NCBI RefSeq assembly: GCF_013201725.1
Contig: NZ_CP053835.1
Coordinates: 372,001 to 436,000 of the forward strand
Reading direction: 5' to 3'
DNA length: 64,000 nt
Source of the DNA: Arcobacter defluvii
GTDB lineage: Bacteria > Campylobacterota > Campylobacteria > Campylobacterales > Arcobacteraceae
Made by a program: the position numbers and the translations under genes. Below, one piece after another: positions 35,371 to 52,464 of the stretch; positions within the stretch are counted from its first letter, which is position 1; every line of letters starts with the position of its first letter. The notes beneath the pieces are model-generated. The model saw only the letters and a list, made by a program, of their open reading frames with translations, was not told where the DNA came from and did not search any database.

Positions 35371-36549
35371 TTATTCCATTGTACCAGCTGGAACGAATAC
35401 ATTTCCTTCCATAATTATTCTAGCACTTCTACTCATAGTTGCTTTATCAACAACATATTTTCCATTTTCTTGTTTGATAACTGCACCAACTTTTAAAGTT
35501 CCAGATGGGTGACCAAATTCAACAGCAGTTTTTTCTCCACCACCAGCAGCTAAGTTAACTAAAGTTCCAGGAATACAAGCAGCAACACCAATAGCAACCG
35601 AAGCAGTTCCCATCATAGCGTGGTGTAATTTTTGCATAGATAACGCACGTACATGTAAATCAATTTCATCTGCTTTAACCTCTTTACCACTAGAAGTTGT
35701 AAAATCAGATTTAGGTGCAACAAATGCAATTTTTGGAGTATGTTGTCTTGTTTCTGCTTCTTTTAAATCAGAGATTAATCCCATTTTTAAAGCAGCATAA
35801 GATCTGATTACTTCAAATCTTGCAAGTGCTTCGGCATCATTGTTTATATCAACTTGTAATTCAGTTCCTTTATATCCAATATCAGCTGCATTAACAAAAC
35901 AAGTAGGAATACCAGCAGTAATCATAGTTGCTTTAAATGTACCAATTCCTGGAACTTCTAAATCATCAACTAAATTTCCAGTAGGGAATAACTCTTCAGA
36001 AGGGTCAACAGGTTCAGCAAATTCTAAAACGATTTCTTCTGCTGGGAAGGCAACACCATCAATGTAGTAATCACCCATTTCTTTAACCATACCATCAACC
36101 ATAGTTACATAACACAAAATAGTTTTTTTGATATTTGCTTGCCAAATTCTTACACAACAAACACCATTTTCAGGTACATTATCAACTAATCCTTCTTTAA
36201 TAGCAAATGGACCAACTGCACTTGATAAGTTCCCACAGTTTCCACTCATGTCTACAAAATCTTTATCAATTGCAACTTGACAGAAATAGTAATCTACATC
36301 ATGATTTGGAACAGTTGATCTACCTACTAAAATTGCTTTTGAAGTAGAAGAAGTAGCTCCTCCCATACCATCCATTTGTTGTTTATAAACATCAGGACTT
36401 CCTACAATTCTTTGAAGTAGTCTATCTCTTTTTTTTGGGTCTTCTTGAGCTTCTTTTGGTAAGTCTGCAATATTGAAGAAAGTACCTTTTGATGTACCAC
36501 CTCTCATATATGTAGCTTTAACTTTAAATTGTGGTTTATAATTACTCAT
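35371..36549 (-). CDS. prpF: 2-methylaconitate isomerase PrpF
   Basis: PrpF isomerises the trans-2-methylaconitate product of AcnD so that it can be hydrated to 2-methylisocitrate. The 392-residue protein begins with the family hallmark ATYMRGGTSKGTFF and has MDGMGGATSSTSK, DMSGNCGNLSSAVGPFA and a late HPSGTLKVGAV segment, the paired halves of the diaminopimelate-epimerase-like fold. It is the last gene of prpB-prpC-acnD-prpF, separated from acnD by two hairpins. Confidence 0.95.
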   Translation of the reverse strand: MSNYKPQFKVKATYMRGGTSKGTFFNIADLPKEAQEDPKKRDRLLQRIVGSPDVYKQQMDGMGGATSSTSKAILVGRSTVPNHDVDYYFCQVAIDKDFVDMSGNCGNLSSAVGPFAIKEGLVDNVPENGVCCVRIWQANIKKTILCYVTMVDGMVKEMGDYYIDGVAFPAEEIVLEFAEPVDPSEELFPTGNLVDDLEVPGIGTFKATMITAGIPTCFVNAADIGYKGTELQVDINNDAEALARFEVIRSYAALKMGLISDLKEAETRQHTPKIAFVAPKSDFTTSSGKEVKADEIDLHVRALSMQKLHHAMMGTASVAIGVAACIPGTLVNLAAGGGEKTAVEFGHPSGTLKVGAVIKQENGKYVVDKATMSRSARIIMEGNVFVPAGTME

Positions 36550-36584
36550 ATTTTAGTTCCTTAAAAATTAGTTTTTTGATTTTA

Positions 36585-36626
36585 AAAACTGTTAAAAAAA
36601 ATCTTTTGATTTCTTTTAACAGTTTT
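36585..36626 (-). other. Intercistronic hairpin 2 between acnD and prpF
   Basis: A perfect 13-bp stem (AAAACTGTTAAAA at 36585-36597, TTTTAACAGTTTT at 36614-36626) with a 16-base loop, within an operon. Confidence 0.6.
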
Positions 36627-36631
36627 ATATT

Positions 36632-36658
36632 CTAAAAAGCATCAATGATGCTTTTTAG
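36632..36658 (-). other. Intercistronic hairpin 1 just after acnD
   Basis: CTAAAAAGCATCA (36632-36644) is mirrored by TGATGCTTTTTAG (36646-36658). It starts nine bases past the acnD stop. It may be an RNA-stabilising 3' end or a leaky terminator. Confidence 0.65.
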
Positions 36659-36666
36659 ATATTTAA

Positions 36667-39276
36667 TTATTTTGAAGATGCAATAACATCTTTAGCGAAT
36701 TTTTGTAAAATACCACCATTTTTGTAAACTTCAACTTCAGCAGAAGTATCTAATCTACATAAAACTTTGAATTTAACAACTTCACCATTTGCTCTTGTCA
36801 TTACAACAGTTAAATCACATCTTGGAGTAATCTCACCTTCAATATCAAATGTTTCAGAACCATCAATATTATAAGTATGTCTTGTTTCTCCATCTTTGAA
36901 TTGTAATGGTAATACACCCATTCCAACTAAATTAGTTCTGTGAATTCTTTCAATTGATTCAGCAATTAATACTTCAACACCTGCAAGTCTTACACCTTTA
37001 GCTGCCCAGTCTCTTGATGAACCTTGTCCATAGTTAGTTCCAGCAATAATAATTAAAGGTTGTTTTCTATTTGTGTAAGTTTCAATTGCTTCCCACATTC
37101 TAGATTCTTTACCTTCTGGCATAATCATTGTTAATGAACCTTGTTTAACTGTTCCATCTGGATTTTTAACCATTTCGTTAAAAAGTTTTGGATTTGCTAA
37201 TGTAGCTCTTGATGCTGTATGATGATCTCCTCTATGCGTAGCGTAAGAGTTTAAGTCTTCAACAGGTAATCCCATTTTTAAACAATATTCACCAGATGCT
37301 GATGTTGGTAAAATTGCATTTGATGGAGATAAGTGATCCGTTGTAATATTATCTGGGAATACACCTAATGGTCTCATACCTTTTAGTGCTGGCATTTGCA
37401 TATATTCATCTTCCCAATAAGGAGGTTTATTTATATATGTAGATTTTGTATTCCATTTATAGAATGGATCAACTTTAATACCTGCTAATCCATTTCTTGC
37501 GAACATTGGATCATAAATTTTTGCAAACATTTCTGGTTTTACAGCAGAATTAACAACTGCATCAACTTCAGCATCAGTTGGCCATAAATCTTTTAGTTTA
37601 ATATCATTTCCATTTTTATCTTTACCTAAAACACCATTTTCAATATCAAATCTAATAGTTCCTGCTAATGCATATGCAATAACAAGTGCAGGAGATGCTA
37701 AAAATGCTTCTTTTACATAAGGGTGAATTCTTCCATCAAAGTTTCTATTTCCTGATAATACAGCTGTTGTATAAATATTGTTATCAACTGCCTCTTTTTG
37801 GATTTTAGGATCTAATGCACCTGACATACCATTACAAGTAGTACATGCAAATCCAACAATACCAAATCCTAATTTTTCTAATTCAGGTAATAATCCAGCC
37901 TCTTTTAAATAAAGTTCTGCAACTTTTGAACCTGGTGCTAAAGAAGATTTAACCCATGGTTTTCTAGTTAATCCAAGCTCATTTGCTTTTTTTGCAAGTA
38001 AACCAGCAGCAACAACATTTCTAGGATTTGAAGTATTTGTACAAGATGTAATTGCAGCAATTAAAATAGCACCATCTGGCATTTTATCACCATCAATTTT
38101 GAAATCTTTGATAATTCCTTCAGCTTTTAATGTTGAAGTTGGAACTAATTTATGTGGTTTAGAAGGACCAGCTAAACTTCTTGTAACAGATGTTAAATCA
38201 AATTTTAAAGTTCTTGCATATGTAGCTTGCTCAAATGCATCTGCCCATAAACCATTTGCTTTAGCATAAGTTTCAACTAATTTAATTTGTTCAGGACTTC
38301 TACCAGTTACTCTTAAGTAATCAATAGTTTGTTCATCAATTGCAAACATTCCCGCACTAGCACCGTATTCAGGAGTCATATTAGCAATAGTAGCTCTATC
38401 ACCTAAATTAAGGTATTTAATACCAGGTCCAAAGAATTCTAAGTAAGCAGAAATTACGTTGTTTTCTCTTAAAAAAGAAGTTAAAGATAATGCAATATCT
38501 GTTGCTGTAATACCTTCAGCTCTTGTTCCAACAATTTCAACACCGATAATTTCAGGAACTCTCATATAAGAAGGATTTCCTAACATTACATTTTCAGCTT
38601 CTAATCCACCAACACCAACAGCGATAACTCCAAGTGCATCAACGTGAGGAGTATGTGAATCTGTTCCTACTAATGTATCTGGACTTGCTATACCATTAAT
38701 GTTGTGAATAACTGGAGACATTTTTTCAAGGTTGATTTGGTGCATAATTCCATTACCTGGAGGAATAACGTCAACATTATTAAATGCTTCTTTAGTCCAG
38801 TTAATAAAGTGGAATCTATCTGCATTTCTTCTATCTTCAATATCTCTATTTTTTTGGAATGCATCTGGATCATATCCACCACACTCAACTGCTAATGAGT
38901 GGTCAACAATTAATTGAGTAGGAACAACAGGATTAACTTTATCAGGATTTCCACCTTTTGATGCTACTGCTTCTCTAAGACCTGCTAAGTCAACAAATGC
39001 TGTTAATCCTAGAATATCATGACAGATTACTCTTGATGGATACCAAGGGAAATCTTTATCAGTTCTTTTTTCAATTAATTGAATAAGTGAATCTTTTAAA
39101 TCTTCACTTGGACATTTTCTTATTAAGTTTTCAGCTAAAACTCTTGATGTATAGTTAAGTTTTGCAAAAGAACCTGGAGTAATGTCTTCAACAGCACTTT
39201 TTACATCATAATATTTAACATCTAAACCATCTAGTTGTTTAAGATATTTTTCGTTTGTCATTGTTTTTATATCCAT
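36667..39276 (-). CDS. acnD: 2-methylcitrate dehydratase, Fe-S dependent (AcnD)
   Basis: AcnD is the aconitase-like enzyme that dehydrates 2-methylcitrate in the cofactor-requiring version of the cycle. The 869-residue protein shows aconitase motifs: GTDSHTPHVDALGVI, AAITSCTNTSNPRN with the first cluster cysteine, GFACTTCNGMSG with the other two, and GTNYGQGSSRDWAAKG. Placement between prpC and prpF distinguishes it from general aconitases AcnA/AcnB. It has its own GAGAA-type ribosome-binding region. Confidence 0.95.
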   Translation of the reverse strand: MDIKTMTNEKYLKQLDGLDVKYYDVKSAVEDITPGSFAKLNYTSRVLAENLIRKCPSEDLKDSLIQLIEKRTDKDFPWYPSRVICHDILGLTAFVDLAGLREAVASKGGNPDKVNPVVPTQLIVDHSLAVECGGYDPDAFQKNRDIEDRRNADRFHFINWTKEAFNNVDVIPPGNGIMHQINLEKMSPVIHNINGIASPDTLVGTDSHTPHVDALGVIAVGVGGLEAENVMLGNPSYMRVPEIIGVEIVGTRAEGITATDIALSLTSFLRENNVISAYLEFFGPGIKYLNLGDRATIANMTPEYGASAGMFAIDEQTIDYLRVTGRSPEQIKLVETYAKANGLWADAFEQATYARTLKFDLTSVTRSLAGPSKPHKLVPTSTLKAEGIIKDFKIDGDKMPDGAILIAAITSCTNTSNPRNVVAAGLLAKKANELGLTRKPWVKSSLAPGSKVAELYLKEAGLLPELEKLGFGIVGFACTTCNGMSGALDPKIQKEAVDNNIYTTAVLSGNRNFDGRIHPYVKEAFLASPALVIAYALAGTIRFDIENGVLGKDKNGNDIKLKDLWPTDAEVDAVVNSAVKPEMFAKIYDPMFARNGLAGIKVDPFYKWNTKSTYINKPPYWEDEYMQMPALKGMRPLGVFPDNITTDHLSPSNAILPTSASGEYCLKMGLPVEDLNSYATHRGDHHTASRATLANPKLFNEMVKNPDGTVKQGSLTMIMPEGKESRMWEAIETYTNRKQPLIIIAGTNYGQGSSRDWAAKGVRLAGVEVLIAESIERIHRTNLVGMGVLPLQFKDGETRHTYNIDGSETFDIEGEITPRCDLTVVMTRANGEVVKFKVLCRLDTSAEVEVYKNGGILQKFAKDVIASSK

Positions 39277-39326
39277 ATTTTGAAGTTTATTATTGAGAAT
39301 TTGGAATATTTAATATTCACCAGTTT

Positions 39327-39353
39327 TTTAAGTTAGCAAAAAGCTAACTTAAA
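39327..39353 (-). other. Intercistronic hairpin between prpC and acnD
   Basis: An 11-bp stem TTTAAGTTAGC (39327-39337) with GCTAACTTAAA (39343-39353) and a loop of five A lies in the 90-base gap. Confidence 0.6.
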
Positions 39354-39366
39354 TTTGAAAATAAAA

Positions 39367-40476
39367 TTATTTTCTATCTTCTAAAGAAACAAATGCTCTT
39401 GGCTCAGGTCCAGTATATTCAGAACTTGGTCTGATAATTCTGTTATTTGCTCTTTGTTCAAATGCATGAGCTGCCCATCCAGCTGCTCTTGACATAATGA
39501 ATAAAGGTGTATAGTATAATCTTTCGATTTCCATATAGTGGTAAATTAATCCACCAAAGAAGTCGATATTATCTGGTAAACCTTTATCAGCTTTTACTTT
39601 GTCTCTAATTGCTTTTGCAATATCAAATAGTTTTGGATCAGAAGTTTCTAATTCTCTTAATTCTGAAGCTAATTCAAAACCTACTGGAGATCTTGGGTCT
39701 AAGTTTCTATAAACTCTATGTCCAAATCCCATGATTTTTTCTTTTTTTGCAAATAATTCATCAACTGATTTTAATGCGTGTTCAACATTATCAAATTGTA
39801 ATACAAATTTGATAGCAACTTCGTTAGCTCCACCATGTAAGTGACCTTTTAAAGTTCCAATTCCAGTTGTCATACAAGAATAAATATCTGATAATGTAGA
39901 AGCTGTAATTCTATTTGCAAATGTAGAAGCATTAAATTCATGCTCTGCATATAAAGTTAACATTGCATTCATAGCTTTAACTTCAACTGCTTTTGGTTTA
40001 GTTTCTTTTAATCTTTCTAAGATATAACCAGCAATTGTAGTTTCTTCAGAAATTAAATCAATTTCTTTACCATGTTTATGCCAGTGATGCCAGTAAACTA
40101 AAAATGATGGGAATGCACCTAATAATCTAATGATTTTTGCCATTTGATCAGAAAAATCTTCTGCTTCTGGTTCAACACAACCTAAAGCAGAAGTTGCAGT
40201 TTTCATAACATCCATTGGATGAGAAGAAGCTGGAATTGATTTTAATACGTTTTTAACGCTAATTGGTAATTCTCTTCCTGCAATAATTTTTCTTCTGAAG
40301 TCTTTTAATTGTGCTTTATTTGGTAATTCACCAACTAATAATAAGTATGCAACTTCTTCAAAATCTGCTTTTAAAGCTAAATCTGCAATATCATATCCTC
40401 TATAATTAAGTCCATTTCCTAATCCACAAGTACAAATTGCTGAAGTTCCAGCTGTAACACCTGCTAATCCACCCAT
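39367..40476 (-). CDS. prpC: 2-methylcitrate synthase
   Basis: PrpC condenses propionyl-CoA with oxaloacetate. The 369-residue citrate synthase-fold protein shows NYRGYDIADLA, the active-site histidine in LKGHLHGGANEVA, the second in MGFGHRVYRNLDPRS, and PDNIDFFGGLIYH with the aspartate region nearby. Its short form and position between prpB and acnD support methylcitrate rather than citrate synthase. GGAG is 5 bases upstream of the ATG. Confidence 0.94.
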   Translation of the reverse strand: MGGLAGVTAGTSAICTCGLGNGLNYRGYDIADLALKADFEEVAYLLLVGELPNKAQLKDFRRKIIAGRELPISVKNVLKSIPASSHPMDVMKTATSALGCVEPEAEDFSDQMAKIIRLLGAFPSFLVYWHHWHKHGKEIDLISEETTIAGYILERLKETKPKAVEVKAMNAMLTLYAEHEFNASTFANRITASTLSDIYSCMTTGIGTLKGHLHGGANEVAIKFVLQFDNVEHALKSVDELFAKKEKIMGFGHRVYRNLDPRSPVGFELASELRELETSDPKLFDIAKAIRDKVKADKGLPDNIDFFGGLIYHYMEIERLYYTPLFIMSRAAGWAAHAFEQRANNRIIRPSSEYTGPEPRAFVSLEDRK

Positions 40477-40515
40477 ATTTTCTCCTTAGTTTTATTTATT
40501 CAAATTTTATTTTAA

Positions 40516-40539
40516 GTAAAGCTAATTATTTAGCTTTAC
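40516..40539 (-). other. Hairpin at the prpB-prpC junction
   Basis: A 9-bp stem GTAAAGCTA (40516-40524) with TAGCTTTAC (40531-40539) contains the prpB stop codon in its loop region. Confidence 0.45.
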
Positions 40540-41410
40540 CTTTTGAAAATAATTCATCCATTTTTTGCTCATAAGCATGGTAATTTAACATATCGTATAA
40601 TTCCATTCTTGTTTGCATTGTTCCTAGAACACCTTCTTGTGTACCTTTTTCTTTTAATTCTTGATATACAGTTAAAGCAGCTTTATTCATCGCTCTGAAT
40701 GCTGATAATGGATATAGAACCATTGAAATACCAACTGAAGCTAATTCTTCTGTTGTAAACATTGGAGTTGCACCAAATTCAGTAATATTTGCTAATACTG
40801 GAACTTTGATTACATCTGTAAATTCTTTATATTCTTTTAAAGTGTGAATTGCTTCAGCAAAAATCATATCTGCACCAGCTTCAACATAAGCTTTTGCTCT
40901 ATCAATTGCAGCTTGTTGACCTTCACTTGCGTGAGCATCTGTTCTAGCAATAATTACAAACTCAGGGTCAAGTTGCATTTTAGCATCTACAGCAGCTCTA
41001 ATTCTATCGCACATTTCTTCTGTTGAAACTAATTCTTTATTTGGTCTGTGACCACATCTTTTAGCAGCAACTTGATCTTCAATATGAAGTCCAGCAGCAC
41101 CATATCTGATGAATTCTTTAACAGTTCTTGCAATATTAAATGCATGTCCCCAACCAGTATCAGCATCCACGATTAATGGTGTATCACAAATAGAAGTAAT
41201 TCTTCTAATATCAATACATACATCTTCTAACATTGTCATACCTAAGTCTGGTAAACCATAAGAAGCGTTTGCAATACCTCCACCTGATAAATAGATAGCT
41301 TTGTGTCCAGCTCTTGTAGCTTGTAATGCTTGATAAGCATTAATTGTTCCTACGATTTGTAAAGGAGACTCTTCTTTTAAGGCTTCTCTAAATTTTTTTC
41401 CTGCGCTCAT
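40526..41410 (-). CDS. prpB: 2-methylisocitrate lyase
   Basis: PrpB splits 2-methylisocitrate into pyruvate and succinate, the last step of the cycle. The 294-residue protein of the isocitrate lyase superfamily has [43 protein letters not shown] with the catalytic cysteine, and [13 protein letters not shown] start it at the ATG at 41410 (MSAGKKFRE), because AAAGGA lies five bases before it; an ATG two codons upstream overlaps that element. It is the first gene of the operon, divergent from an HTH regulator. Confidence 0.96.
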
Positions 41411-41439
41411 ACACATCCTTTAAATTTAAGTTGACTGTC

Positions 41440-42571: not shown

Positions 42572-43498
42572 ATGAAAATAGTAATTTTAGATAGAGCAAC
42601 TTTAGGATTTGATATTGATGTATCAATTTTTGAAAAATATGGAGAAGTTACTTCTTATGATGTAACAAAAAACGAAAAAACGAAAGAAAGAATAAAAGAT
42701 GCAGATATTGTTCTTACTAATAAAGTTGTTATTGGTAAAGATGAAATGGATGATTCAAATGTAAAACTTATTTGTATAACTGCAACAGGAACAAATAATG
42801 TAGATTTAGTTTATGCAAAAGAAAAAGGAATAGAAGTGAAAAATGTGGCTGGATATTCAACTTCAAGTGTTGTTCAAGTTGCTTTTTCTATGATTTTTTA
42901 TTTTGTTCAAAAATTAAATTATTACAAAACTTATGTAGATGAGGGAAAATGGCAAAAATCAAAAATTTTTACTCATATAGATAAACCATTTTATGAACTT
43001 GATAAAAAAAGAGTTGGAGTTATAGGACTTGGTGAAATAGGACGAAATTTAGCAAAAAAATCACGAGCTTTTGATTGTGAAGTAGTTTATTATTCAACAA
43101 GTGGAAAAAACGCTAATAGTGAATATAAACAAGTAAGTCTTGATGAGTTACTAAAAACAAGTGATATTATCTCTATTCATGCACCATTAAATGAAAATAC
43201 AAAAGATTTATTAAATTATGAAAATATGAAAAATATGAAAAAAGGTGCAATTTTACTAAATCTTGGTCGTGGTGGAATTATCAATGAAAATGATTTGGCA
43301 AAACTTATAGATGAAAAAGAGATTTATTGTGGGATTGATGTTGTAAATAAAGAACCAATTGAAGAGTCAAATCCACTTTTAAAAGTTAAAAATAAAGATA
43401 GACTTTTATTAACTCCACATATTGGTTGGGCAAGTATTGAAGCTAGAACAAGACTTGTAGAAATGGTTGCTCAAAATATAGAAGAGTTTATTTTCTAA
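42572..43498 (+). CDS. D-2-hydroxyacid dehydrogenase (NAD-dependent)
   Basis: A 308-residue dehydrogenase of the D-isomer-specific family. The Rossmann fold has GVIGLGEIGRNLAKK. Catalytic residues fall in NLGRGGIINEND (arginine), KEPIEESNPLL (glutamate) and TPHIGWASIEAR (histidine). Substrates could be hydroxypyruvate, glycerate or lactate-like acids; sequence alone does not decide. The 9-base spacing after the HTH regulator suggests co-transcription. Its 3' end overlaps a minus-strand small gene by 11 bases. Confidence 0.88.
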   Translation: MKIVILDRATLGFDIDVSIFEKYGEVTSYDVTKNEKTKERIKDADIVLTNKVVIGKDEMDDSNVKLICITATGTNNVDLVYAKEKGIEVKNVAGYSTSSVVQVAFSMIFYFVQKLNYYKTYVDEGKWQKSKIFTHIDKPFYELDKKRVGVIGLGEIGRNLAKKSRAFDCEVVYYSTSGKNANSEYKQVSLDELLKTSDIISIHAPLNENTKDLLNYENMKNMKKGAILLNLGRGGIINENDLAKLIDEKEIYCGIDVVNKEPIEESNPLLKVKNKDRLLLTPHIGWASIEARTRLVEMVAQNIEEFIF

Positions 43499-43619
43499 AG
43501 AAAAATCTGAAAAGTTTTTGAAAAAAAGATAATCTCTTTTTTTCAATCTTTTCTTTTACTTCTTTTGATAACTCTTCTAAATTTCTTGGTTCATAAAGGT
43601 GTTTTTTTGATATTTCCAT
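43488..43619 (-). CDS. Small basic protein coupled to the motor pair (43 residues)
   Basis: This gene was found by reading the minus strand. The ATG at 43619-43617 shares its first base with the stop of the MotB-like gene (TAATG), so it is probably translationally coupled. It encodes 43 residues starting MEISKKHLYEPRNLEEL and ending in a lysine-rich amphipathic or membrane-associated tail with five phenylalanines (SFFQKLFRFFFRK). The stop lies 11 bases inside the convergent dehydrogenase gene. I recognise no family. The charged front and Phe-rich basic end suggest a peripheral membrane or regulatory partner of the motor proteins. Confidence 0.6.
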   Translation of the reverse strand: MEISKKHLYEPRNLEELSKEVKEKIEKKRLSFFQKLFRFFFRK

Positions 43620-44650
43620 TATTTCTTCTCACCTAAATAGTTTTGAATTTCTCTTATAGCTTCTTCATTTTTTATTGTAAATTTAATCTCTATTCTTCTT
43701 GAGGCATCTTTATCTTCAACACCATTTTTATCTAAAATTAAATCAGATGATGAACGCCCACTAGAATTTACATAAGTTGATAAAAGATTTTTATCTATGA
43801 TATTAGAATCATATAAAAACTGCATAACTGCATGTGCTCTTTGTTGAGATAATGAAAGATTTGAAAGATATGTTCCATCACTATTAGTATGTCCTTCAAT
43901 AGTGATACTTTCAATATATTTTTTCATCTCTTTATCACCAAGTAAAGTATTCAAATATTTTTTCAAAGTATTACTTAACTCTTTTTTTGCATTTTCTTTT
44001 AAAATATAAGAGTTTTGGTCAAATAAAATATTTGAAGAGAATTTTATAGCTCCACTTTTTTCATCAATATTTATTGATTTTCCTAGTTTCTCTTTTAGTT
44101 TTGCAATAACTGTTAATTTTATACCTGTTAAGTTTTTGATTTTTAATTTTGCTATATCAAACTCTTCAACCATTTTTTGATGAATTTGTGTTTGAACTAA
44201 TAACTTATCAGCAAGCATAGTTAATTCTTCATCTTTTAAACTTATCATATTTGTTTTTTCAGTTAATTCTGCTGATAATTTTTCATTTTTATCTTTTTCA
44301 TCTTTTACATTTAATTCATACTCTAAAAGTAAAGCTTTTAATTTTTCTATTTCTGCAAGATTTAAAGAGATTTTATTATCTTTATCTTTTAGTTCAGATG
44401 CTGCTTTATCTAAATCACTTTTTGTTGTTTCATATAGATTTTTTGCTTTTGCCAATTCATAAAAAAGTTTAGATTTTGCCTCTTCACTTGAGTTTAAAGC
44501 TGCTTTTTCTTTTTCTAAATTACTTTGTGTATAAACATATTTTATTACAATAGCTCCAATTACTAAGATGAATACAAAAAGTAATCCAGCCATCAAATCA
44601 GCATAAGATATCCAAAAGTTTTCATCATTTTTTTGCTCTTTATTGTACAT
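43619..44650 (-). CDS. MotB/OmpA-like motor stator protein
   Basis: A 343-residue inner-membrane protein with the layout of MotB/ZorB/TolR-type partners of rotary stators. The N-terminal membrane segment has the proton-carrying aspartate D18 in WISYADLMAGLLFVFILV. A coiled coil of about 100-120 residues follows (lysine and glutamate heptads, about 45-165). The C-terminal OmpA-like domain (about 205-335) shows IEGHTNSDGTYLSNLSLSQQRA and DASRRIEIKF for peptidoglycan binding. The long coil between membrane and OmpA domain is larger than in flagellar MotB. The MotA-like gene lies 6 bases upstream, and a 43-residue gene is coupled downstream. Confidence 0.88.
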   Translation of the reverse strand: MYNKEQKNDENFWISYADLMAGLLFVFILVIGAIVIKYVYTQSNLEKEKAALNSSEEAKSKLFYELAKAKNLYETTKSDLDKAASELKDKDNKISLNLAEIEKLKALLLEYELNVKDEKDKNEKLSAELTEKTNMISLKDEELTMLADKLLVQTQIHQKMVEEFDIAKLKIKNLTGIKLTVIAKLKEKLGKSINIDEKSGAIKFSSNILFDQNSYILKENAKKELSNTLKKYLNTLLGDKEMKKYIESITIEGHTNSDGTYLSNLSLSQQRAHAVMQFLYDSNIIDKNLLSTYVNSSGRSSSDLILDKNGVEDKDASRRIEIKFTIKNEEAIREIQNYLGEKK

Positions 44651-44656
44651 TTTTTA

Positions 44657-45883
44657 CTACTTTGATATTTCTTTAAATTCTTTAAAATCTTTTATGATTT
44701 TTGTAGTTTCTTCATCAATCAATTCAAGAGAGTTTTTTAATCTATTTTCAATATTTTCATCATACTCTTCTAAACCTTTTTTGAATTTCCATTCAACTTT
44801 TTCCATATCAGCTTTCATAGTTTCAATACTTTTTACAATATTTGTATAGATTGCTTTTAGATTATCAGAACTTAAATTACCCATATGAGAATTTAGTTTT
44901 TCTATATTTGCATTTAATAATTCTGCATTTAAAGCATATAAATCTTTTTGTTTTTCAAAACTTTTTATTGTTGTTTGCATATTTAAAGTCATATCTTTTA
45001 ACATAATTGATAATTTCTCATTATTATCAATATTTTCTGCAATTTTAGAAGATAAAATCAACTCTTTTTTCAAAATTTCTTCTAAAACTTCAAATCTGTG
45101 TTCAATTGAAGAATTAATATTATCTAAAATATCACTTGATGTTAATTGATTAAATACTTCACTCATTTTTGTAAAATTATCTAAATTACTTTTTATATGG
45201 ATTGATTCGATATCAACTTTTGTCCAGAAAAAATGTTTAGTATTTTCTTTAATTACAAATGTATCATGATCAAATCTACTCATCCCAATTTTTTCAAAGA
45301 ATATCCACCAAATTGATAAAAAAATACCATAAATAGAAACATAAAATGCAGTACCAACTCCACCTAAAAGCTTTGAAATTTCACCTTCTAATGCACTTGT
45401 TGTTCCAGATGTAAAATCAGGCATACTAAGAGCAATAGAGATAAAAGTTCCTAAAATCCCTAATGTTGGGAAAATTCCTGATGCAATTGAAGAAAAGTTT
45501 GTATTTCTTATGTTACTTGTGTAATCTTTTAAAAAGTCATCTACACTTCCATTTGCTTTTGTTGTTTCACCAATAGTTAATAAATTTTTATTGATATACT
45601 CTTTTAAATTAAAAGCTAACTCATAATATTGTGTTCTAAACTTACAAGAAACATAATATGCATTATGTTTTACAAAAAATAGATAAATAAAAAATATAAA
45701 ACCAATTAAAACAACACTATGAATCTCTACTTTCAAAGGAAAATATCCCAAAAAACACAATAAAATAATTGCAAATAAAGCAGCAGGCACAGTAAGTAGT
45801 GTAAAAATCCTAGATTGAGGTTTACAAGTCGTGTAAAATTTTGAATTTAGTTCAATAAAATCATCATCTGTGAACATGAACAT
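44657..45883 (-). CDS. MotA/TolQ/ExbB-family proton channel with long coiled-coil tail
   Basis: A 408-residue membrane protein. It has four membrane segments (about 28-48, 53-72, 133-155 and 175-198), with the conserved channel motif in SIASGIFPTLGILGTFISIAL and LLGGVGTAFYVSIYGIFLSI. After the last segment comes a cytoplasmic helical tail of about 200 residues rich in E, K, I and N. MotA-type proteins form pentamers around two MotB-type subunits and use ion flow to rotate. Flagellar MotA has no such tail, while Zorya-type ZorA does. Flagellar genes and ZorC/D/E partners are absent here. Confidence 0.85.
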   Translation of the reverse strand: MFMFTDDDFIELNSKFYTTCKPQSRIFTLLTVPAALFAIILLCFLGYFPLKVEIHSVVLIGFIFFIYLFFVKHNAYYVSCKFRTQYYELAFNLKEYINKNLLTIGETTKANGSVDDFLKDYTSNIRNTNFSSIASGIFPTLGILGTFISIALSMPDFTSGTTSALEGEISKLLGGVGTAFYVSIYGIFLSIWWIFFEKIGMSRFDHDTFVIKENTKHFFWTKVDIESIHIKSNLDNFTKMSEVFNQLTSSDILDNINSSIEHRFEVLEEILKKELILSSKIAENIDNNEKLSIMLKDMTLNMQTTIKSFEKQKDLYALNAELLNANIEKLNSHMGNLSSDNLKAIYTNIVKSIETMKADMEKVEWKFKKGLEEYDENIENRLKNSLELIDEETTKIIKDFKEFKEISK

Positions 45884-46036: not shown

Positions 46037-47314
46037 ATGCTAAAAAATATTTTAACTCTATTATTTATCACATCATATATTTATGCTTCAGAAGAAAAAT
46101 ATACTATTTCAGTTTGTGTAACTTCTAATCTTGAAAATGCACTTGTATGTAAAAAAAGAATTTTTGACAAAATGCAAGGAGATGTTTTTATCGTAAAAGA
46201 TAAAAAAGAAAAATTTCATACATATTTAAATATTTATAATAATAAAGAAGAAGCACTTATTGCTATTAAATCAACTTCATCTTATGTAAAAAAACAAAAA
46301 CCTTATGTGAAATTATTAGAAAATGAAGTTTTGTTTTCTAAATCAAAAAACAAAATATTTATTGATTTAAATAATCCAATTAAACCTATTGTTGAAACAA
46401 TTGTTGTAAAAAAAGAGAATATTGCTGATATAAAAGAAGAAAAAAAAGAAGAGAAAAAATTTAAAGAAGAATTTCCCTTAGTTTCAGTTGTTCCAAATAT
46501 GGAAGAGTTAAAACTTGTAGGTTCTTATCCTTTTCCTGAAGGAAAAAAATTTGTAGATGATGATGTGATTATAGAAGAAAAACCTGAGATAAAAGAAGAA
46601 CCAATTCAAAAAGAAGTTGTTTTAGAAGAAAAAAATGATGTTTCAGATGAAACACCATATGAAGAAGAAATAAGACAAATTAGTATGGATGAATTTGATA
46701 AAGCTTATGAAGAGGAAGAAAATAAAGTTCAAAAAATAACAAAAAGTTATGAGAAAATAAAACCAGTAAAAAAAGAGATAAAAAAAGTTAGTTTACCAAA
46801 AGAGAAAAAAGAAAAGGTAGATTATAGTTCAAATGTTTTAGATTATCAACAGCTGATAATTGAGGTTGATTCTGTAACAAATTATATGACAGTAAAAGCT
46901 CAAATAAATGACCATTTACAAAAAATAAAAACATATAGAGTTTCAACTGGGAAAAAAGATGTAAAAAAACCATTTGGGGTTGGAAAAATTTCTCAGATTT
47001 CTTTAAATCCAGTTTGGTATCCAACCGCTGATACAATAAAAAGTTTTAGAAAAAGAGGAATTTATCTTCCTTCTGTTGTACCTCCTGGAGATAAATACAA
47101 CTATATGGGAGCTGCAAAAATAAATCTTACACATATTGTTGATGGGAAAAATACTTTTAGAATACATGGTACTTTAAATGAAAAAACAATAGGAACTAAT
47201 GAATCAGCAGGATGTATAAGAATGAAAAATAGTGATGTTTTACAACTTGCAAATTTAATAAATGATTTTGCAAGTATGAAAAGTATGGATAAAGTAAAAG
47301 TTGTTTTGAAGTGA
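46037..47314 (+). CDS. L,D-transpeptidase with N-terminal SPOR-like region
   Basis: A 425-residue exported protein. A signal peptide (LTLLFITSYIYASE) is followed by a SPOR-like fold of about 80 residues (YTISVCVTSNLENALVCKK...). Next is a charged, low-complexity linker (about 115-265) full of E and K, then a YkuD domain (about 275-425) with HGTLNEKTIGTNESAGCIRM: the catalytic C393 with upstream histidine. YkuD enzymes form 3-3 cross-links or attach lipoproteins to peptidoglycan. SPOR regions bind denuded glycan, so septal targeting is plausible. It is divergent from the motor genes. Confidence 0.88.
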   Translation: MLKNILTLLFITSYIYASEEKYTISVCVTSNLENALVCKKRIFDKMQGDVFIVKDKKEKFHTYLNIYNNKEEALIAIKSTSSYVKKQKPYVKLLENEVLFSKSKNKIFIDLNNPIKPIVETIVVKKENIADIKEEKKEEKKFKEEFPLVSVVPNMEELKLVGSYPFPEGKKFVDDDVIIEEKPEIKEEPIQKEVVLEEKNDVSDETPYEEEIRQISMDEFDKAYEEEENKVQKITKSYEKIKPVKKEIKKVSLPKEKKEKVDYSSNVLDYQQLIIEVDSVTNYMTVKAQINDHLQKIKTYRVSTGKKDVKKPFGVGKISQISLNPVWYPTADTIKSFRKRGIYLPSVVPPGDKYNYMGAAKINLTHIVDGKNTFRIHGTLNEKTIGTNESAGCIRMKNSDVLQLANLINDFASMKSMDKVKVVLK

Positions 47315-47383: not shown

Positions 47384-47986
47384 ATGCAAAATATGTCAAA
47401 AATGATTAGATTAGGTTTAGTAGTTGCTGGTACTTTATCAGTTATAACAAGTAGTGTTATTGCCGAAGATTTACCAAATCGAGGTCCAATAGAATTTTCA
47501 ACTTATGATATAAATAACGATGGATTTGTAAGTGAAAAAGAGTTTAATGAAATAAGAGAAAAAAGAATGGAGCAAAAAGCATCAGCTGGAATGCCTATGA
47601 AAAATGCAATCAATGCTCCTGATTTTACTTCTTTAGATACAAATAAAGATGGAAAATTAACTGAACTTGAGTTATTAAAAGGTCAAAATAAACAAATGCA
47701 ACTTAACCAAGGAAATAGGGGAATGGGGCAAGGAATAAATGGTAAAGGTATGGGAAAAGGTTACAATATGCCAGCATTTGAAAGTTTTGATTTAAATAAT
47801 GATGGAAAAATCAGTGAAAAAGAGATGGAAGAAGTTAGAGAAAAAAGAATGGAACAAAAAGCATCTGAAGGAAAAATGATGAGAAATATTGGTAATCAAC
47901 CAATGTTTTCAGACATAGATACAAATAATGATGGAAATATAACTAAAGAAGAGTTCTTAAATCATCAAATGAAACAAAGACAATAA
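47384..47986 (+). CDS. Periplasmic protein with four EF-hands
   Basis: A 200-residue protein with a signal peptide (cleavage after about residue 28, VIAEDL) and four EF-hand calcium loops at residues 42-53, 85-96, 136-147 and 179-190 (for example DINNDGFVSEKE and DTNNDGNITKEE). The two halves are near copies: each has a DxNNDG loop, then EKRMEQKAS, then a second loop. A Gly/Met-rich linker (about 108-130) joins them. It probably binds calcium in the periplasm. It is followed by a terminator. Confidence 0.88.
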   Translation: MQNMSKMIRLGLVVAGTLSVITSSVIAEDLPNRGPIEFSTYDINNDGFVSEKEFNEIREKRMEQKASAGMPMKNAINAPDFTSLDTNKDGKLTELELLKGQNKQMQLNQGNRGMGQGINGKGMGKGYNMPAFESFDLNNDGKISEKEMEEVREKRMEQKASEGKMMRNIGNQPMFSDIDTNNDGNITKEEFLNHQMKQRQ

Positions 47987-47990
47987 TTTT

Positions 47991-48028
47991 ATATTGAGGG
48001 TGTTTTTTTATGCCCTCAATATTTTTTA
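47991..48028 (+). terminator. Terminator of the EF-hand gene
   Basis: A 10-bp stem ATATTGAGGG (47991-48000) with CCCTCAATAT (48013-48022), followed by TTTTTTA. Confidence 0.85.
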
Positions 48029-48103
48029 TTCTTATATAAATACTAACTCAACCTATGCTAATATCCCAACCAAAATTATAAACTCAAATATAAAAAAGAA
48101 TAT

Positions 48104-48895
48104 ATGAAAAAAATAACAGAAGAATTTATAGCAAAACATCAGCCTTATTTATATAATTTGGCTTTACGATTAGTTTATTATAAAGAAGATGCTTTAGATT
48201 TAACAAACGATGTTTGGATTAAAATTATTGAAAGTATTGATACTTTTGAAGAAAAATCTGAGTTTAAAACTTGGGCTTATCGTATTATGATTAATTGCTT
48301 TTTAAATCAAAAAAGAAAATATAGAGACCTTACTTTTGAGAATTTTGCTAATACAATGGATAATTTAAAAAACTCTATGTTATCAGATGAATATGATGAA
48401 CCTTTCAAACAACTTTTGATTGAAGAGGCAAAAATTGGATGTATGAGAGGAATGCTTTTGTGTTTAAATCCTGAACAAAGAGCAATTCTAATTATTGGAG
48501 ATATTTTTGAAATAAATAGTGATATTTCAAGTGAAATATTTTCTATTTCTAAAGAAAATTTTAGAAAAAAATTATCTCGTGCAAGAAGTGATTTGTATAA
48601 TTTTATGAACAATCATTGCTCACTTATAAATAAACAAAATTCTTGTAAATGTGAACAAAAAACAAAAGCATTGATTGAAAAAGGTTATGTAAATCCTAAG
48701 AACATAGAGTTTTTTGCAAGTTTCCAAAATACAATTAAAAATACTATAAAAACAAAATCAAATAATCTTGATTTAACTATGGAAAAACTATATAAAGATT
48801 TATATCAAGAACATCCTTTTTACGAAAGTGATATAAAAATATTTGCAATAAATATACTAAAAAATGAAGAAATTAAAGAAATATTTGAATTATAG
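48104..48895 (+). CDS. ECF-type RNA polymerase sigma factor with cysteine-containing extension
   Basis: A 263-residue sigma factor. Region 2 (about 10-75) shows HQPYLYNLALRLVYYKEDALDL and EEKSEFKTWAYRIMINCFLN. Region 4 (about 110-170) has LCLNPEQRAILIIGDIFEI and a helix-turn-helix ISKENFRKKLSRARSDLY. Beyond that is an extension of about 90 residues with a cysteine cluster (HCSLINKQNSCKCEQKTKALIEKG), known in one ECF group and possibly metal or redox-sensing. No anti-sigma gene is adjacent. Downstream genes are an ABM-like protein and an AraC regulator. Confidence 0.87.
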   Translation: MKKITEEFIAKHQPYLYNLALRLVYYKEDALDLTNDVWIKIIESIDTFEEKSEFKTWAYRIMINCFLNQKRKYRDLTFENFANTMDNLKNSMLSDEYDEPFKQLLIEEAKIGCMRGMLLCLNPEQRAILIIGDIFEINSDISSEIFSISKENFRKKLSRARSDLYNFMNNHCSLINKQNSCKCEQKTKALIEKGYVNPKNIEFFASFQNTIKNTIKTKSNNLDLTMEKLYKDLYQEHPFYESDIKIFAINILKNEEIKEIFEL

Positions 48896-50364: not shown

Positions 50365-52464
50365 ATGAATAAAAAATACCAAATACTAAAAGATATTTTC
50401 GGACACGAGCAGTTTAGAAGCTTTCAAGAAGAGGTTGTTGATTGCATTATTAACAAACAAGATGTTTTGACGATTTTACCAACTGGTGGTGGAAAATCAC
50501 TTTGTTATCAACTTCCTACACTTCTTATGGATGGAACTACTGTTGTAATTTCTCCTCTTATTGCACTTATGCAAGACCAGATAAAAGCTTTGAATGATTT
50601 GAATATTAGTGCCGAAATGATAAGTTCAGCAACTTCAAATGATGAAAATAGTTTCACTCTTCAAAAGCTTTTAAATGGCGAGTTAAAATTTATTTATGTG
50701 GCACCTGAAAGGTTCACTTCAAATGAGTTTGTAGCAGTTTTACAGCGAATAAATATAAACTATTTTGTAATAGATGAAGCCCATTGTGTTTCTGCTTGGG
50801 GTCATGAGTTTAGGGCTGAGTATAGAAATCTCGATAGATTAAAAAGATTTTTTCCAAATACTGCAATTTGCGCATTTACTGCAACTGCTACAAAAAAAGT
50901 TGAAGCTGATATTGCTTCCTCTTTGAACTTGCAAAATCCTAGACATTTTAGAGCAAAAACTGTAAGAGATAATCTTGATATAAAAGTAGAACCACGAATT
51001 GCAAATGGGAAAACTCAAATATTAAATTTCCTAAAAACCCACAAAGGTTTATGTGGGATTATTTATACTTTCACAAGAAAAGAAGCTGAATCAACAGCTG
51101 AGTTTTTAAGTGAAAGTGGATATAGCGCAAAAGCTTATCATGCAGGACTTAGTAATGATAGAAAAAATGAAGTTTTTAATGATTTTGTATATGAAAAAAT
51201 AGATATTGTGGTAGCAACAATCGCTTTTGGTATGGGAATTGATAAATCAAATATCCGTTTTGTAATACATACTTCATTGCCTAAAACCCTTGAAAATTAT
51301 TATCAAGAAATAGGAAGAGCTGGTCGTGATGGTGAAATGTCTTATGTTTATATGCTTTATTCAAAATCTGATGAGGTAAAAAGAAAAATCCAAATTGAAG
51401 AAGCTATAGATAATGCTTACAAACAAACTGGACTTGATAAGTTAGAGTTTATGTATAGATATTGTGTGAGTAATAATTGCCGTCATAAGATGATTGCAGG
51501 TTATTTTGAAGATGAGATAGAAGCTTGTAAAACTCTATGTGATAACTGCACAAAAGGTGAAGTGGATCAGGTTGATGTGAGTGTGGATGCTCAAAAACTT
51601 CTAAGTGCCATTTATAGAAGTGAACAAAGATTTGGATTAAATCATATTATTGATATTTTACGTGGTTCAAAAAATCAAAAGTTATTAGATTTTGGACATG
51701 ATAAACTAAGCGTTTATAATCTAGGAATTGATAAAAGCAAAAATGAGTGGATAGCAATTGCAGATAAATTAATAGATATTCAAGCACTTACTTTAGGGGA
51801 ATTTCGAGCCTTGAAAATAAGTTCTTTAGGTTTAGAGATTTTAAAAGGTAAAGAAAAACTTTTTATTGATAGTGATAAACTAGGAATTGCTTCAAAAATC
51901 CAAGAAGAAGAGACTGAGTTAAGTTTTGATGAGCTAATTTATGAAAGATTCAGAACCTTACGAAGAGAGATAGCATTAGAACATGAAATTCCAGCTTATG
52001 TGATATTTGGAGATAAAACTTTAAAAGAGTTTGCCCTAAAGTTGCCAATTACAAAAGATGAAATGTTAAATATAAATGGCGTTGGTCTTGTAAAATATGA
52101 AAAATATGGAGAGACTTTTTTAAATTTATGCAAAGAGATAAAAGATGAATTTAAAGAAAAACTTGAACAAAAAGAGCCTTTAAAGAAACTAACAAAAACA
52201 TATCTTGAAACTTATGAACTTTTAAATGAAGGAAAAAGTGTAGAAGAGATAGCCCAAATTAGAGATTTAGGATTAACTTCTGTTCTAGGTCATATTTCAG
52301 TTTTGACTGAACATGAAAAAATCTCAAAAGAGAAAAAAGAAGAGTTATTAAAACCCCTTGAAATTCCTTTAAATATAAAAGCTTGGATAGAAGAGGGAAC
52401 AAAACTTGAAAGTTTAAAAGAGTTAAGACAATATTTGTATTTGTATGAATATTTATCAAAATAA
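50365..52464 (+). CDS. recQ: ATP-dependent DNA helicase RecQ
   Basis: RecQ unwinds DNA 3' to 5' and acts in recombination repair. The 699-residue protein has Walker A LPTGGGKSLCYQLP, the DEAH box in VIDEAHCVSAWGHEFR, the SAT motif FTATATKKVE, and helicase motif VI HTSLPKTLENYYQEIGRAGR. The RQC zinc site is built from cysteines in RYCVSNNCRH and ACKTLCDNC, and an HRDC domain at about 520-600 (IALEHEIPAYVIFGD) follows. A C-terminal helix-turn-helix-like region (about 610-690) completes it. It has its own promoter region. Confidence 0.96.
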   Translation: MNKKYQILKDIFGHEQFRSFQEEVVDCIINKQDVLTILPTGGGKSLCYQLPTLLMDGTTVVISPLIALMQDQIKALNDLNISAEMISSATSNDENSFTLQKLLNGELKFIYVAPERFTSNEFVAVLQRININYFVIDEAHCVSAWGHEFRAEYRNLDRLKRFFPNTAICAFTATATKKVEADIASSLNLQNPRHFRAKTVRDNLDIKVEPRIANGKTQILNFLKTHKGLCGIIYTFTRKEAESTAEFLSESGYSAKAYHAGLSNDRKNEVFNDFVYEKIDIVVATIAFGMGIDKSNIRFVIHTSLPKTLENYYQEIGRAGRDGEMSYVYMLYSKSDEVKRKIQIEEAIDNAYKQTGLDKLEFMYRYCVSNNCRHKMIAGYFEDEIEACKTLCDNCTKGEVDQVDVSVDAQKLLSAIYRSEQRFGLNHIIDILRGSKNQKLLDFGHDKLSVYNLGIDKSKNEWIAIADKLIDIQALTLGEFRALKISSLGLEILKGKEKLFIDSDKLGIASKIQEEETELSFDELIYERFRTLRREIALEHEIPAYVIFGDKTLKEFALKLPITKDEMLNINGVGLVKYEKYGETFLNLCKEIKDEFKEKLEQKEPLKKLTKTYLETYELLNEGKSVEEIAQIRDLGLTSVLGHISVLTEHEKISKEKKEELLKPLEIPLNIKAWIEEGTKLESLKELRQYLYLYEYLSK

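What the first reader, a model, noticed from the sequence alone, without database searches (positions are those of the whole stretch)
43488..45883. Orphan MotA/MotB-like motor with a long cytoplasmic tail and a tiny third gene
A MotA/TolQ-type channel (408 residues) with a helical cytoplasmic tail of about 200 residues is followed by a MotB-like partner with a large coiled coil before its OmpA domain. No flagellar, Tol-Pal, ExbD or Zorya ZorC/D/E genes are nearby. The tail recalls ZorA, where the tail transmits a signal, so this may be an uncharacterised rotary signalling or defence-like motor. The sequence shows the domains directly; the role is inference.
Basis: partly seen in the sequence, partly recalled or inferred. 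Interest (0 to 1): 0.6.

Follow-up and report, generated by a model that had tools for sequence, protein, structure and literature searches.

The report
Core Zorya-like motor of Campylobacter relatives
Bacteria related to Campylobacter carry, apparently as an ordinary inherited gene pair, an ion-driven membrane motor whose nearest known relative is the motor of the Zorya anti-virus defence system, but without Zorya's other genes and, in many of them, with a small conserved third gene beside it.

Summary
Three minus-strand genes: A (44657-45883, MotA/ExbB type, ~190-residue helical tail), B (43619-44650, long helix, then OmpA domain) and C (43488-43619, 43 residues). By sequence and fold A is nearest ZorA and B nearest ZorB; a tree sets A apart from the ExbB/TolQ/MotA rows. 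It is not a Zorya system: ZorC occurs in 1 of 100 relatives, at another locus. The A family is in 71 of 150 genomes of the phylum, one copy each: all 55 of one family (taken as Campylobacteraceae; C. jejuni has it, probably Cj0598-Cj0599), none of 47 of another. That is a core-gene pattern. Seven of nine genomes without flagellin keep it, so it is hardly a flagellar stator. C is real: behind B in all 30 congeneric genomes that have B, and in other genera. New: the stretch from B's membrane Asp to its OmpA domain spans 159 to 345 residues, yet 105 of 114 lengths are 7n+2, so B looks like a heptad-registered rod. Best reading: a housekeeping ZorAB-like rotary complex that monitors or works on the cell wall and signals inward through A's tail. 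The role is inferred; no function was tested.

The parts
44657..45883 (-). gene A: ZorA-like channel subunit (408 aa; likelier start 45877, 406 aa): four helices read as membrane helices, core F138-F147 largely invariant with T146 and T178 invariant, helical cytoplasmic tail from about residue 219 with a conserved tip (about residues 381-397)
   Evidence: PF01618; ZorA best by sequence and by fold; alignments A1 and A4; model; tip
43619..44650 (-). gene B: ZorB-like anchor subunit (343 aa): membrane helix with invariant D18 (FWISYADLM), long helix to about residue 189, OmpA peptidoglycan-type domain about 201-326
   Evidence: OmpA; ZorB best by sequence and fold; model; heptad spacing
43488..43619 (-). 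gene C: 43-aa basic protein (13 K+R, 7 D+E), motif LYxPxxLxxLS then a hydrophobic, basic C-terminal stretch; start overlaps the stop of B (TAATG)
   Evidence: behind B in 30 of 30 congeneric genomes with B and in 33 of 73 named-collection loci; dN/dS 0.11-0.58
46037..47314 (+). divergent neighbour: L,D-transpeptidase (YkuD); same neighbour in 19 of 20 loci of the genus examined, 0 of 21 outside; not claimed to be part of the complex
   Evidence: PF03734 1.1e-16; neighbourhood clusters (my count)

Best explanation
A and B form an inner-membrane, ion-driven rotary complex of the ZorAB kind (most likely A5B2), inherited as a core gene pair in several families of Campylobacterota and serving the cell's own envelope, not phage defence. 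Two B helices sit in a ring of five A; ions pass B's D18 and A's ring threonines and turn A against B. B's two coils make one rigid rod of free length but fixed heptad register, which carries the OmpA domains to the peptidoglycan layer. The state of the wall (load, gaps, distance) gates the motor; the five A tails form a rod whose conserved tip passes the result to a cytoplasmic partner. Where present, C binds this complex on the cytoplasmic side, as adaptor or regulator. Shown here: homology, operon, conservation, distribution, kept ion-path residues, heptad-spaced lengths. Inferred from published Zorya and Mot structures: stoichiometry, rotation, wall binding. Inferred only: sensing as the purpose, C's side and binding site.
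For: Nearest solved relatives are ZorA and ZorB by sequence and by fold: B 8vvi E 5.8e-11; A 8qyd E 1.1e-5, ZorA chains Z 10.2-11.0 against 9.2 for the best TolQ/ExbB and 7.2 for C. jejuni MotAB, a middling margin for a helical protein. In a tree of the A core, A family plus ZorA are split from the ExbB/TolQ/MotA rows at 95/93, and the A family is one group at 85/87. D18 invariant in 52 of 52 rows, T146 and T178 in 55 of 55. PMC11890865 (section 6 read) shows for Zorya a 5:2 complex and need for the ZorB Asp, wall binding and the ZorA tail. Core-gene pattern: 71 of 150 phylum genomes, one copy each (G099 a fragment); 55 of 55 in family f10, 0 of 47 in f13. Rod: 105 of 114 lengths are 7n+2, 18 of 26 distinct lengths (p 2e-9), no other modulus from 4 to 11 stands out; 20 of 26 independent pairs differ by multiples of 7, the other six by 3 or 4 modulo 7. 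Tail tip (mean share of the commonest residue 0.52) is better conserved than residues 250-334 (0.36) and 340-375 (0.43), though not than the first tail helix 222-247 (0.59). C beside B.
Against: No experiment shows a function. Outside the genus the neighbours seen are unrelated housekeeping genes and give no pathway. C was not found in Campylobacter or in part of Sulfurospirillum, so it cannot be essential to the core machine, and several Campylobacter species, C. jejuni among them, have also lost the tail-tip motif. The Asp of the Pal/ZorB wall-binding motif GHTD is Asn in the window's B (GHTN), although R271 and R318/R319 are kept. About half of the sampled genomes (79 of 150) lack the pair. 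Heptad spacing is expected of any long coiled coil (PMC13269768, passage), so it argues for a rod, not for rotation or sensing. The tree of B is disturbed by long branches: a type I ZorB falls inside the family and another beside MotB. B's best PADLOC model is a ZorB model with a strong score.
Confidence: 0.58

Rival explanations
1. A force transducer like Tol-Pal or Ton: the motor uses ion flow to pull or turn the long B rod and so moves or tethers wall and outer membrane; the A tail only stabilises the ring.
For: B's stretch from membrane Asp to OmpA domain is 159-345 residues against 61-88 in ZorB references by two looser counts; constant presence in 55 of 55 genomes of one family suggests envelope upkeep; L,D-transpeptidase next door in 19 of 20 genus loci examined.
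Against: The genome already has TolQR with a TolA-like gene and four ExbBD systems; no TolA- or TonB-like gene was seen beside the pair in the neighbours read; the tail has a conserved tip, which a pure force transducer would not need; A's core does not group with ExbB/TolQ.
Confidence: 0.22
2. A minimal, unrecognised Zorya type: A and B sense phage puncture of the wall and C replaces ZorC/D, ZorE or ZorF/G as regulator or effector.
For: Best PADLOC models are ZorB1 (E 7.6e-60) and ZorA1 (E 8.9e-14); Zorya III shows that other partners can replace ZorC/D/E (PMC8565338, passages); C is conserved behind B.
Against: Presence in 55 of 55 sampled species of one family and 30 of 31 genus genomes, unlike a defence system; no match of A in 50,697 phage and 72,556 plasmid records and none confirmed in viral contigs; no Zorya partner model among 10 window neighbours (the only hits were to an ordinary RecQ) or among 10 neighbours from other loci (two hit unrelated defence models); C matched no effector domain; NCBIfam scores far below the Zorya cut-offs.
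Confidence: 0.1
3. A second or auxiliary flagellar stator.
For: Same superfamily; the sampled genomes are mostly flagellated (141 of 150).
Against: 7 of the 9 genomes without a flagellin match keep the family, 64 of 141 with flagellin have it (Fisher p 0.085, not corrected for kinship); two flagellar-type MotAB pairs exist elsewhere in the genome; the core does not group with the one MotA in the tree.
Confidence: 0.03

Closest known systems
Zorya type I ZorAB (8qyd, 8vvn)
   Same: Channel core, A with tail, FWISYADLM membrane motif of B, OmpA wall domain, A-B gene order
   Different: No ZorC/ZorD; tail ~190 residues against ~460 in Shewanella ZorA (PMC11890865); B rod about two to five times longer; small third gene; core-gene distribution
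Zorya type II ZorAB (8vvi)
   Same: Core fold and OmpA domain; best Foldseek match of B and highest Z for A
   Different: Type II ZorA begins almost at the core (tail from residue 100, PMC11890865); no ZorE here
TolQR and ExbBD
   Same: Channel fold
   Different: B ends in an OmpA domain, not a TolR/ExbD domain; no TolA/TonB gene seen beside it
Flagellar MotAB/PomAB
   Same: Channel core, MotB-like OmpA anchor
   Different: Long tail in A, no grouping with MotA, kept in 7 of 9 genomes without flagellin
'Generic ion transporters' of PMC12505986 (outline and sections 6 and 14 read)
   Same: Non-flagellar AB pairs, often with extra domains of unknown function
   Different: That class is said to lack an OmpA-homologous domain in B; this family has one. 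ZorAB was excluded from that paper's tree

Membership tests
Zorya defence system | ZorA-like channel with helical tail plus ZorB-like subunit with OmpA-type domain | tested here: met
Zorya defence system | Partner genes ZorC+ZorD, ZorE, or ZorF+ZorG in the operon | tested here: not met
   41 loci compared by neighbour cluster, neighbours of 20 of them read by eye, 10 window neighbours and 10 neighbours from other loci put to PADLOC without a Zorya partner; PF15611 (ZorC) in 1 of 100 relatives, in another ZorAB locus. Neighbours of the other loci were not run against models
Zorya defence system | Scores above the curated NCBIfam cut-offs | tested here: not met
   A 34.8 bits against 250; B 83.1 against 400
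Zorya defence system | Patchy, mobile distribution | tested here: not met
   55 of 55 in f10, 30 of 31 genus genomes, one copy each in 71 of 71; no phage or plasmid match of A. Absence from f13 (0 of 47) is clade-wise, not patchy
Zorya defence system | Protects against phages | not testable with these tools
   needs plating assays
Flagellar stator (MotAB) | A core groups with flagellar MotA | tested here: not met
   only one own-genome MotA entered the tree (the other lacked the motif used for cutting), on a long branch
Flagellar stator (MotAB) | Occurs with flagella | tested here: not met
   7 of 9 genomes without a flagellin match have it
TolQR/ExbBD | Second subunit with TolR/ExbD-type domain and TolA/TonB partner | tested here: not met
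   OmpA domain instead; no such neighbour seen in those read
5:2 ion-driven rotary motors in general | Membrane Asp in B and ring Thr in A | tested here: met
   D18 in 52 of 52, T146 and T178 in 55 of 55 rows; that these are the ring residues is taken from alignment to ZorA and from recall
5:2 ion-driven rotary motors in general | A5B2 stoichiometry and rotation | not testable with these tools
   no complex prediction or cryo-EM here

The most novel reading that the evidence does not exclude
The trio is the housekeeping counterpart of Zorya: a wall-monitoring rotary signaller in which a heptad-locked B rod reports the peptidoglycan layer, the A tail carries the signal inward and C is a small cytoplasmic output or control subunit. 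Zorya would then be such a machine refitted with nuclease partners, and Campylobacter jejuni would carry a stripped version without C.
Probability: 0.28. Interest if true: 0.82.

Novelty: new variant of a known kind. Interest (0 to 1): 0.6.

Why it matters
Zorya is known as a defence system. A close relative that looks like a core gene, kept by every sampled genome of a family that seems to be Campylobacteraceae, whether flagellated or not, would show what such motors do without phages and make the origin of Zorya testable. It also gives a probable function class to two C. jejuni genes (probably Cj0598 and Cj0599; cj0598 is listed as of unknown function in PMC5841378, passage). The heptad rule gives a direct experiment: change the rod by 7 residues or by 4 and compare.

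Tried and rejected
Chance ORF for C: rejected. The whole-genome search holds 12 genus genomes with B that gave no row; all 12 have C behind B. dN/dS of C is noisy (0.11-0.58, 40-49 codons, six pairs), weaker than A and B (0.01-0.25).

C needs the tail tip: the 37 loci that I marked as having C (33 by score, four added by eye) all carry some form of the tip motif, but the Sulfurospirillum cavolei group has the tip without C, so the link is one-way at best.

Heptad rule for A's tail: tested, not found (89 of 120 tails measured). ZorB spacing: two counts with looser motifs gave 72-88 (5 proteins) and 61-81 (15 proteins); the second may start at another strand. A first count for B used too narrow a motif (21 rows) and was redone.

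Context as a guide to role: the L,D-transpeptidase is beside A only in this genus. Flagellar link: no. Viral contigs: 41 pattern matches, none confirmed as a relative. Promoter and terminator scan: 11 promoter-like sites where shuffles give 20.3, no terminator; uninformative.

Tree of B: not used for type I ZorB, whose two rows fall inside the family and beside MotB; a Pal-like row also joins loosely. The second-look fold list puts TolQ/ExbB within two Z units of ZorA; families missing there are not excluded. A hit for 'ZorAB' in PMC11332940 was an author's name. PMC10077673 (TraDIS) does not name the genes in its main text.

Literature: searches, 97 of the open-licence library showed no paper on this family in their listings; supplements and subscription papers were not searched. 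Cj0598/Cj0599 rests on gene order: cj0596 is the PPIase and cj0597 the aldolase (PMC2782263, PMC3229698, passages), and in two C. jejuni loci A and B follow such a pair (family confirmed for one).
Full report
What is there. A matches PF01618 (30.2 bits, cut-off 22.9); B matches OmpA (E 1.3e-13) and, under the cut-off, the MotB plug; C has no credible match. A probably starts at the second ATG, 45877.

Nearest kin. By sequence the best solved relatives of both proteins are ZorA and ZorB; the best PADLOC models are ZorA1 and ZorB1, but NCBIfam scores are far below the Zorya cut-offs. By fold, B is nearest ZorB (8vvi, E 5.8e-11) and A nearest ZorA (8qyd, E 1.1e-5; Z 10.2-11.0 against 9.2 for TolQ/ExbB and 7.2 for MotAB of C. 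jejuni). A tree of 45 core segments splits A family plus ZorA from the ExbB, TolQ and MotA rows (95/93) and holds the 18 A-family rows together (85/87), with several long branches. In the tree of B 14 of 16 ZorB rows, with two other OmpA rows, form a separate clade (99/96); the two type I rows are misplaced or unresolved, one inside the family, one beside MotB. The genome also has two MotAB pairs, TolQR with a TolA-like gene, and four ExbBD systems elsewhere, so this is the eighth PF01618 channel there.

Not Zorya. PF15611 (ZorC) was found in 1 of 100 relatives, G082, next to that genome's own ZorAB and a ZorD-like helicase; that ZorA is a weak match of the A profile. In 41 loci compared by neighbour cluster, 20 of them also read by eye, no ZorC/D/E-like neighbour was seen; 10 window neighbours and 10 neighbours from other loci gave no Zorya partner in PADLOC. 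[quoted passage not shown]

A core-gene pattern. With a profile of A, 71 of 150 genomes of the phylum have one copy at E<=4e-67; the next 18 are weak matches at 2e-13 to 4e-4, most of them in genomes that also match ZorA2 well. By family code: f10 55 of 55, f20 5 of 5, f6 4 of 5, f1 5 of 8, f16 1 of 11, f7 1 of 1, f13 0 of 47, and 0 of 18 in five further families. Two f10 loci share the peb4-fba-A-B order with C. jejuni, so f10 is taken as Campylobacteraceae. The named collection gave 270 relatives; the 80 shown include Aliarcobacter, Arcobacter, Poseidonibacter, Sulfurospirillum, Sulfurimonas, Sulfuricurvum and Campylobacter jejuni, coli, showae and bilis. A had no confirmed match in viral contigs, phages or plasmids; B matched 38 plasmid records at under 60% identity, 17 of the 30 listed annotated as Zorya ZorB. 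In a joint A+B tree of 75 rows the 13 Arcobacteraceae are one group (98); the other family labels need extra changes, for which bins and old names may be to blame but transfer is not excluded.

Hardly a flagellar stator. Flagellin was found in 141 of 150 genomes; of the nine without it seven have the A family.

The third gene. A C profile over the whole genomes of 100 relatives gave 33 strong single hits: the 30 genus genomes that have B (G005, 87% complete, lacks both) and three other genera, each directly behind B; 21 of the 33 had given rows to the profile, 12 had not. Of three weak hits one (G099) is also directly behind B, one lies inside a long ORF, and one is on a contig where B cannot be checked. 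In the named loci C follows B in 33 of 73, in Arcobacteraceae and in bins labelled Sulfurimonas, Sulfuricurvum and Sulfurospirillum; it was not found in Campylobacter or the S. cavolei group. The conserved parts are LYxPxxLxxLS and a hydrophobic, basic C-terminal stretch, which is mildly amphipathic (shuffles reach its moment in 4.7%).

The rod. The number of residues from B's membrane Asp to the first strand motif of the OmpA domain was counted without alignment in 114 of 117 loci: 159 to 345. Of these 105 leave remainder 2 on division by 7 (18 of 26 distinct lengths, p 2e-9), and no other divisor from 4 to 11 stands out; the OmpA domain itself varies only between 104 and 108. Some loci come from the same strains, so the fairer test is on a tree of 90 rows: of 26 independent pairs that differ in length, 20 differ by a multiple of 7 (p 1.2e-12), and the six others by 3 or 4 modulo 7, the size of one stutter. 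In ZorB references the stretch is 61-88 residues by looser counts. Length is thus free and register nearly not: the mark of a continuous coiled coil. The same rule is reported as expected for a signalling coiled coil in histidine kinases (PMC13269768, passage). A's tail shows no such rule. Its tip (about residues 381-397, KLxxSLxxIDxETxxII) is better conserved than residues 250-375, though less than the first tail helix 222-247, and some form of it is present in all 37 loci marked as having C.

How it most likely works. From Zorya (PMC11890865: section 6 and passages read) I take a 5:2 complex, ion flow past the B Asp, wall binding by B, and a pentameric A tail proposed to pass a signal. Residues expected to matter are kept: D18, T146, T178, R271, R318/R319, although the GHTD Asp is Asn in the window. 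The longer, rigid rod would hold the wall domain at a set distance and angle from the motor. I infer a housekeeping monitor of the wall (confidence 0.58), with a Tol-like force transducer as the main rival (0.22). C as cytoplasmic adaptor is a guess from its composition and position.

Novelty. A widely conserved, apparently non-defence branch of ZorAB-like motors with a small third gene and a heptad-spaced rod: a new variant of a known kind. The listings of the searches showed no study of it; PMC5841378 lists cj0598 as of unknown function (passage) and PMC2672935 names Cj0599 'major outer membrane protein' in a list of proteins found by mass spectrometry (passage).

Noticed in passing
window 45877: Second in-frame ATG of A has the better ribosome-site spacing; the 408-aa start is probably two codons too long.
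   Followed up: partly
window 46037-47314: L,D-transpeptidase divergent from A, with a long N-terminal part without a Pfam match; same neighbour in 19 of 20 genus loci examined.
   Followed up: partly
window 35371-41416: PrpF, aconitase, citrate synthase and PEP mutase/isocitrate lyase family genes in a row: a methylcitrate-type cluster by recall.
   Followed up: no
window 47384-48895: EF-hand protein followed by a sigma-70 region 2 protein, possibly a regulator and its neighbour.
   Followed up: no
window 50365-52464: RecQ-type helicase (RQC, HRDC) that scores E 7e-195 against a PADLOC DpdF model: a likely false defence call.
   Followed up: no
L166 3185-10437: A type I Zorya locus in relative G082: ZorA 645 aa, ZorB 239, ZorC 451 (PF15611) and a 1073-aa ZorD-like helicase (334 bits, under the cut-off of 1500).
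   Followed up: partly
L147, L148, L151-L158, B genes: Two or three D/E-x-N-x-S/T sequons in B of these ten Campylobacter loci, as expected (recalled) for periplasmic N-glycosylation.
   Followed up: no
L151, L153, L154, L156-L158, A genes: In C. jejuni, C. coli and near kin A's tail ends in an acidic stretch in place of the conserved tip, and C was not found.
   Followed up: partly
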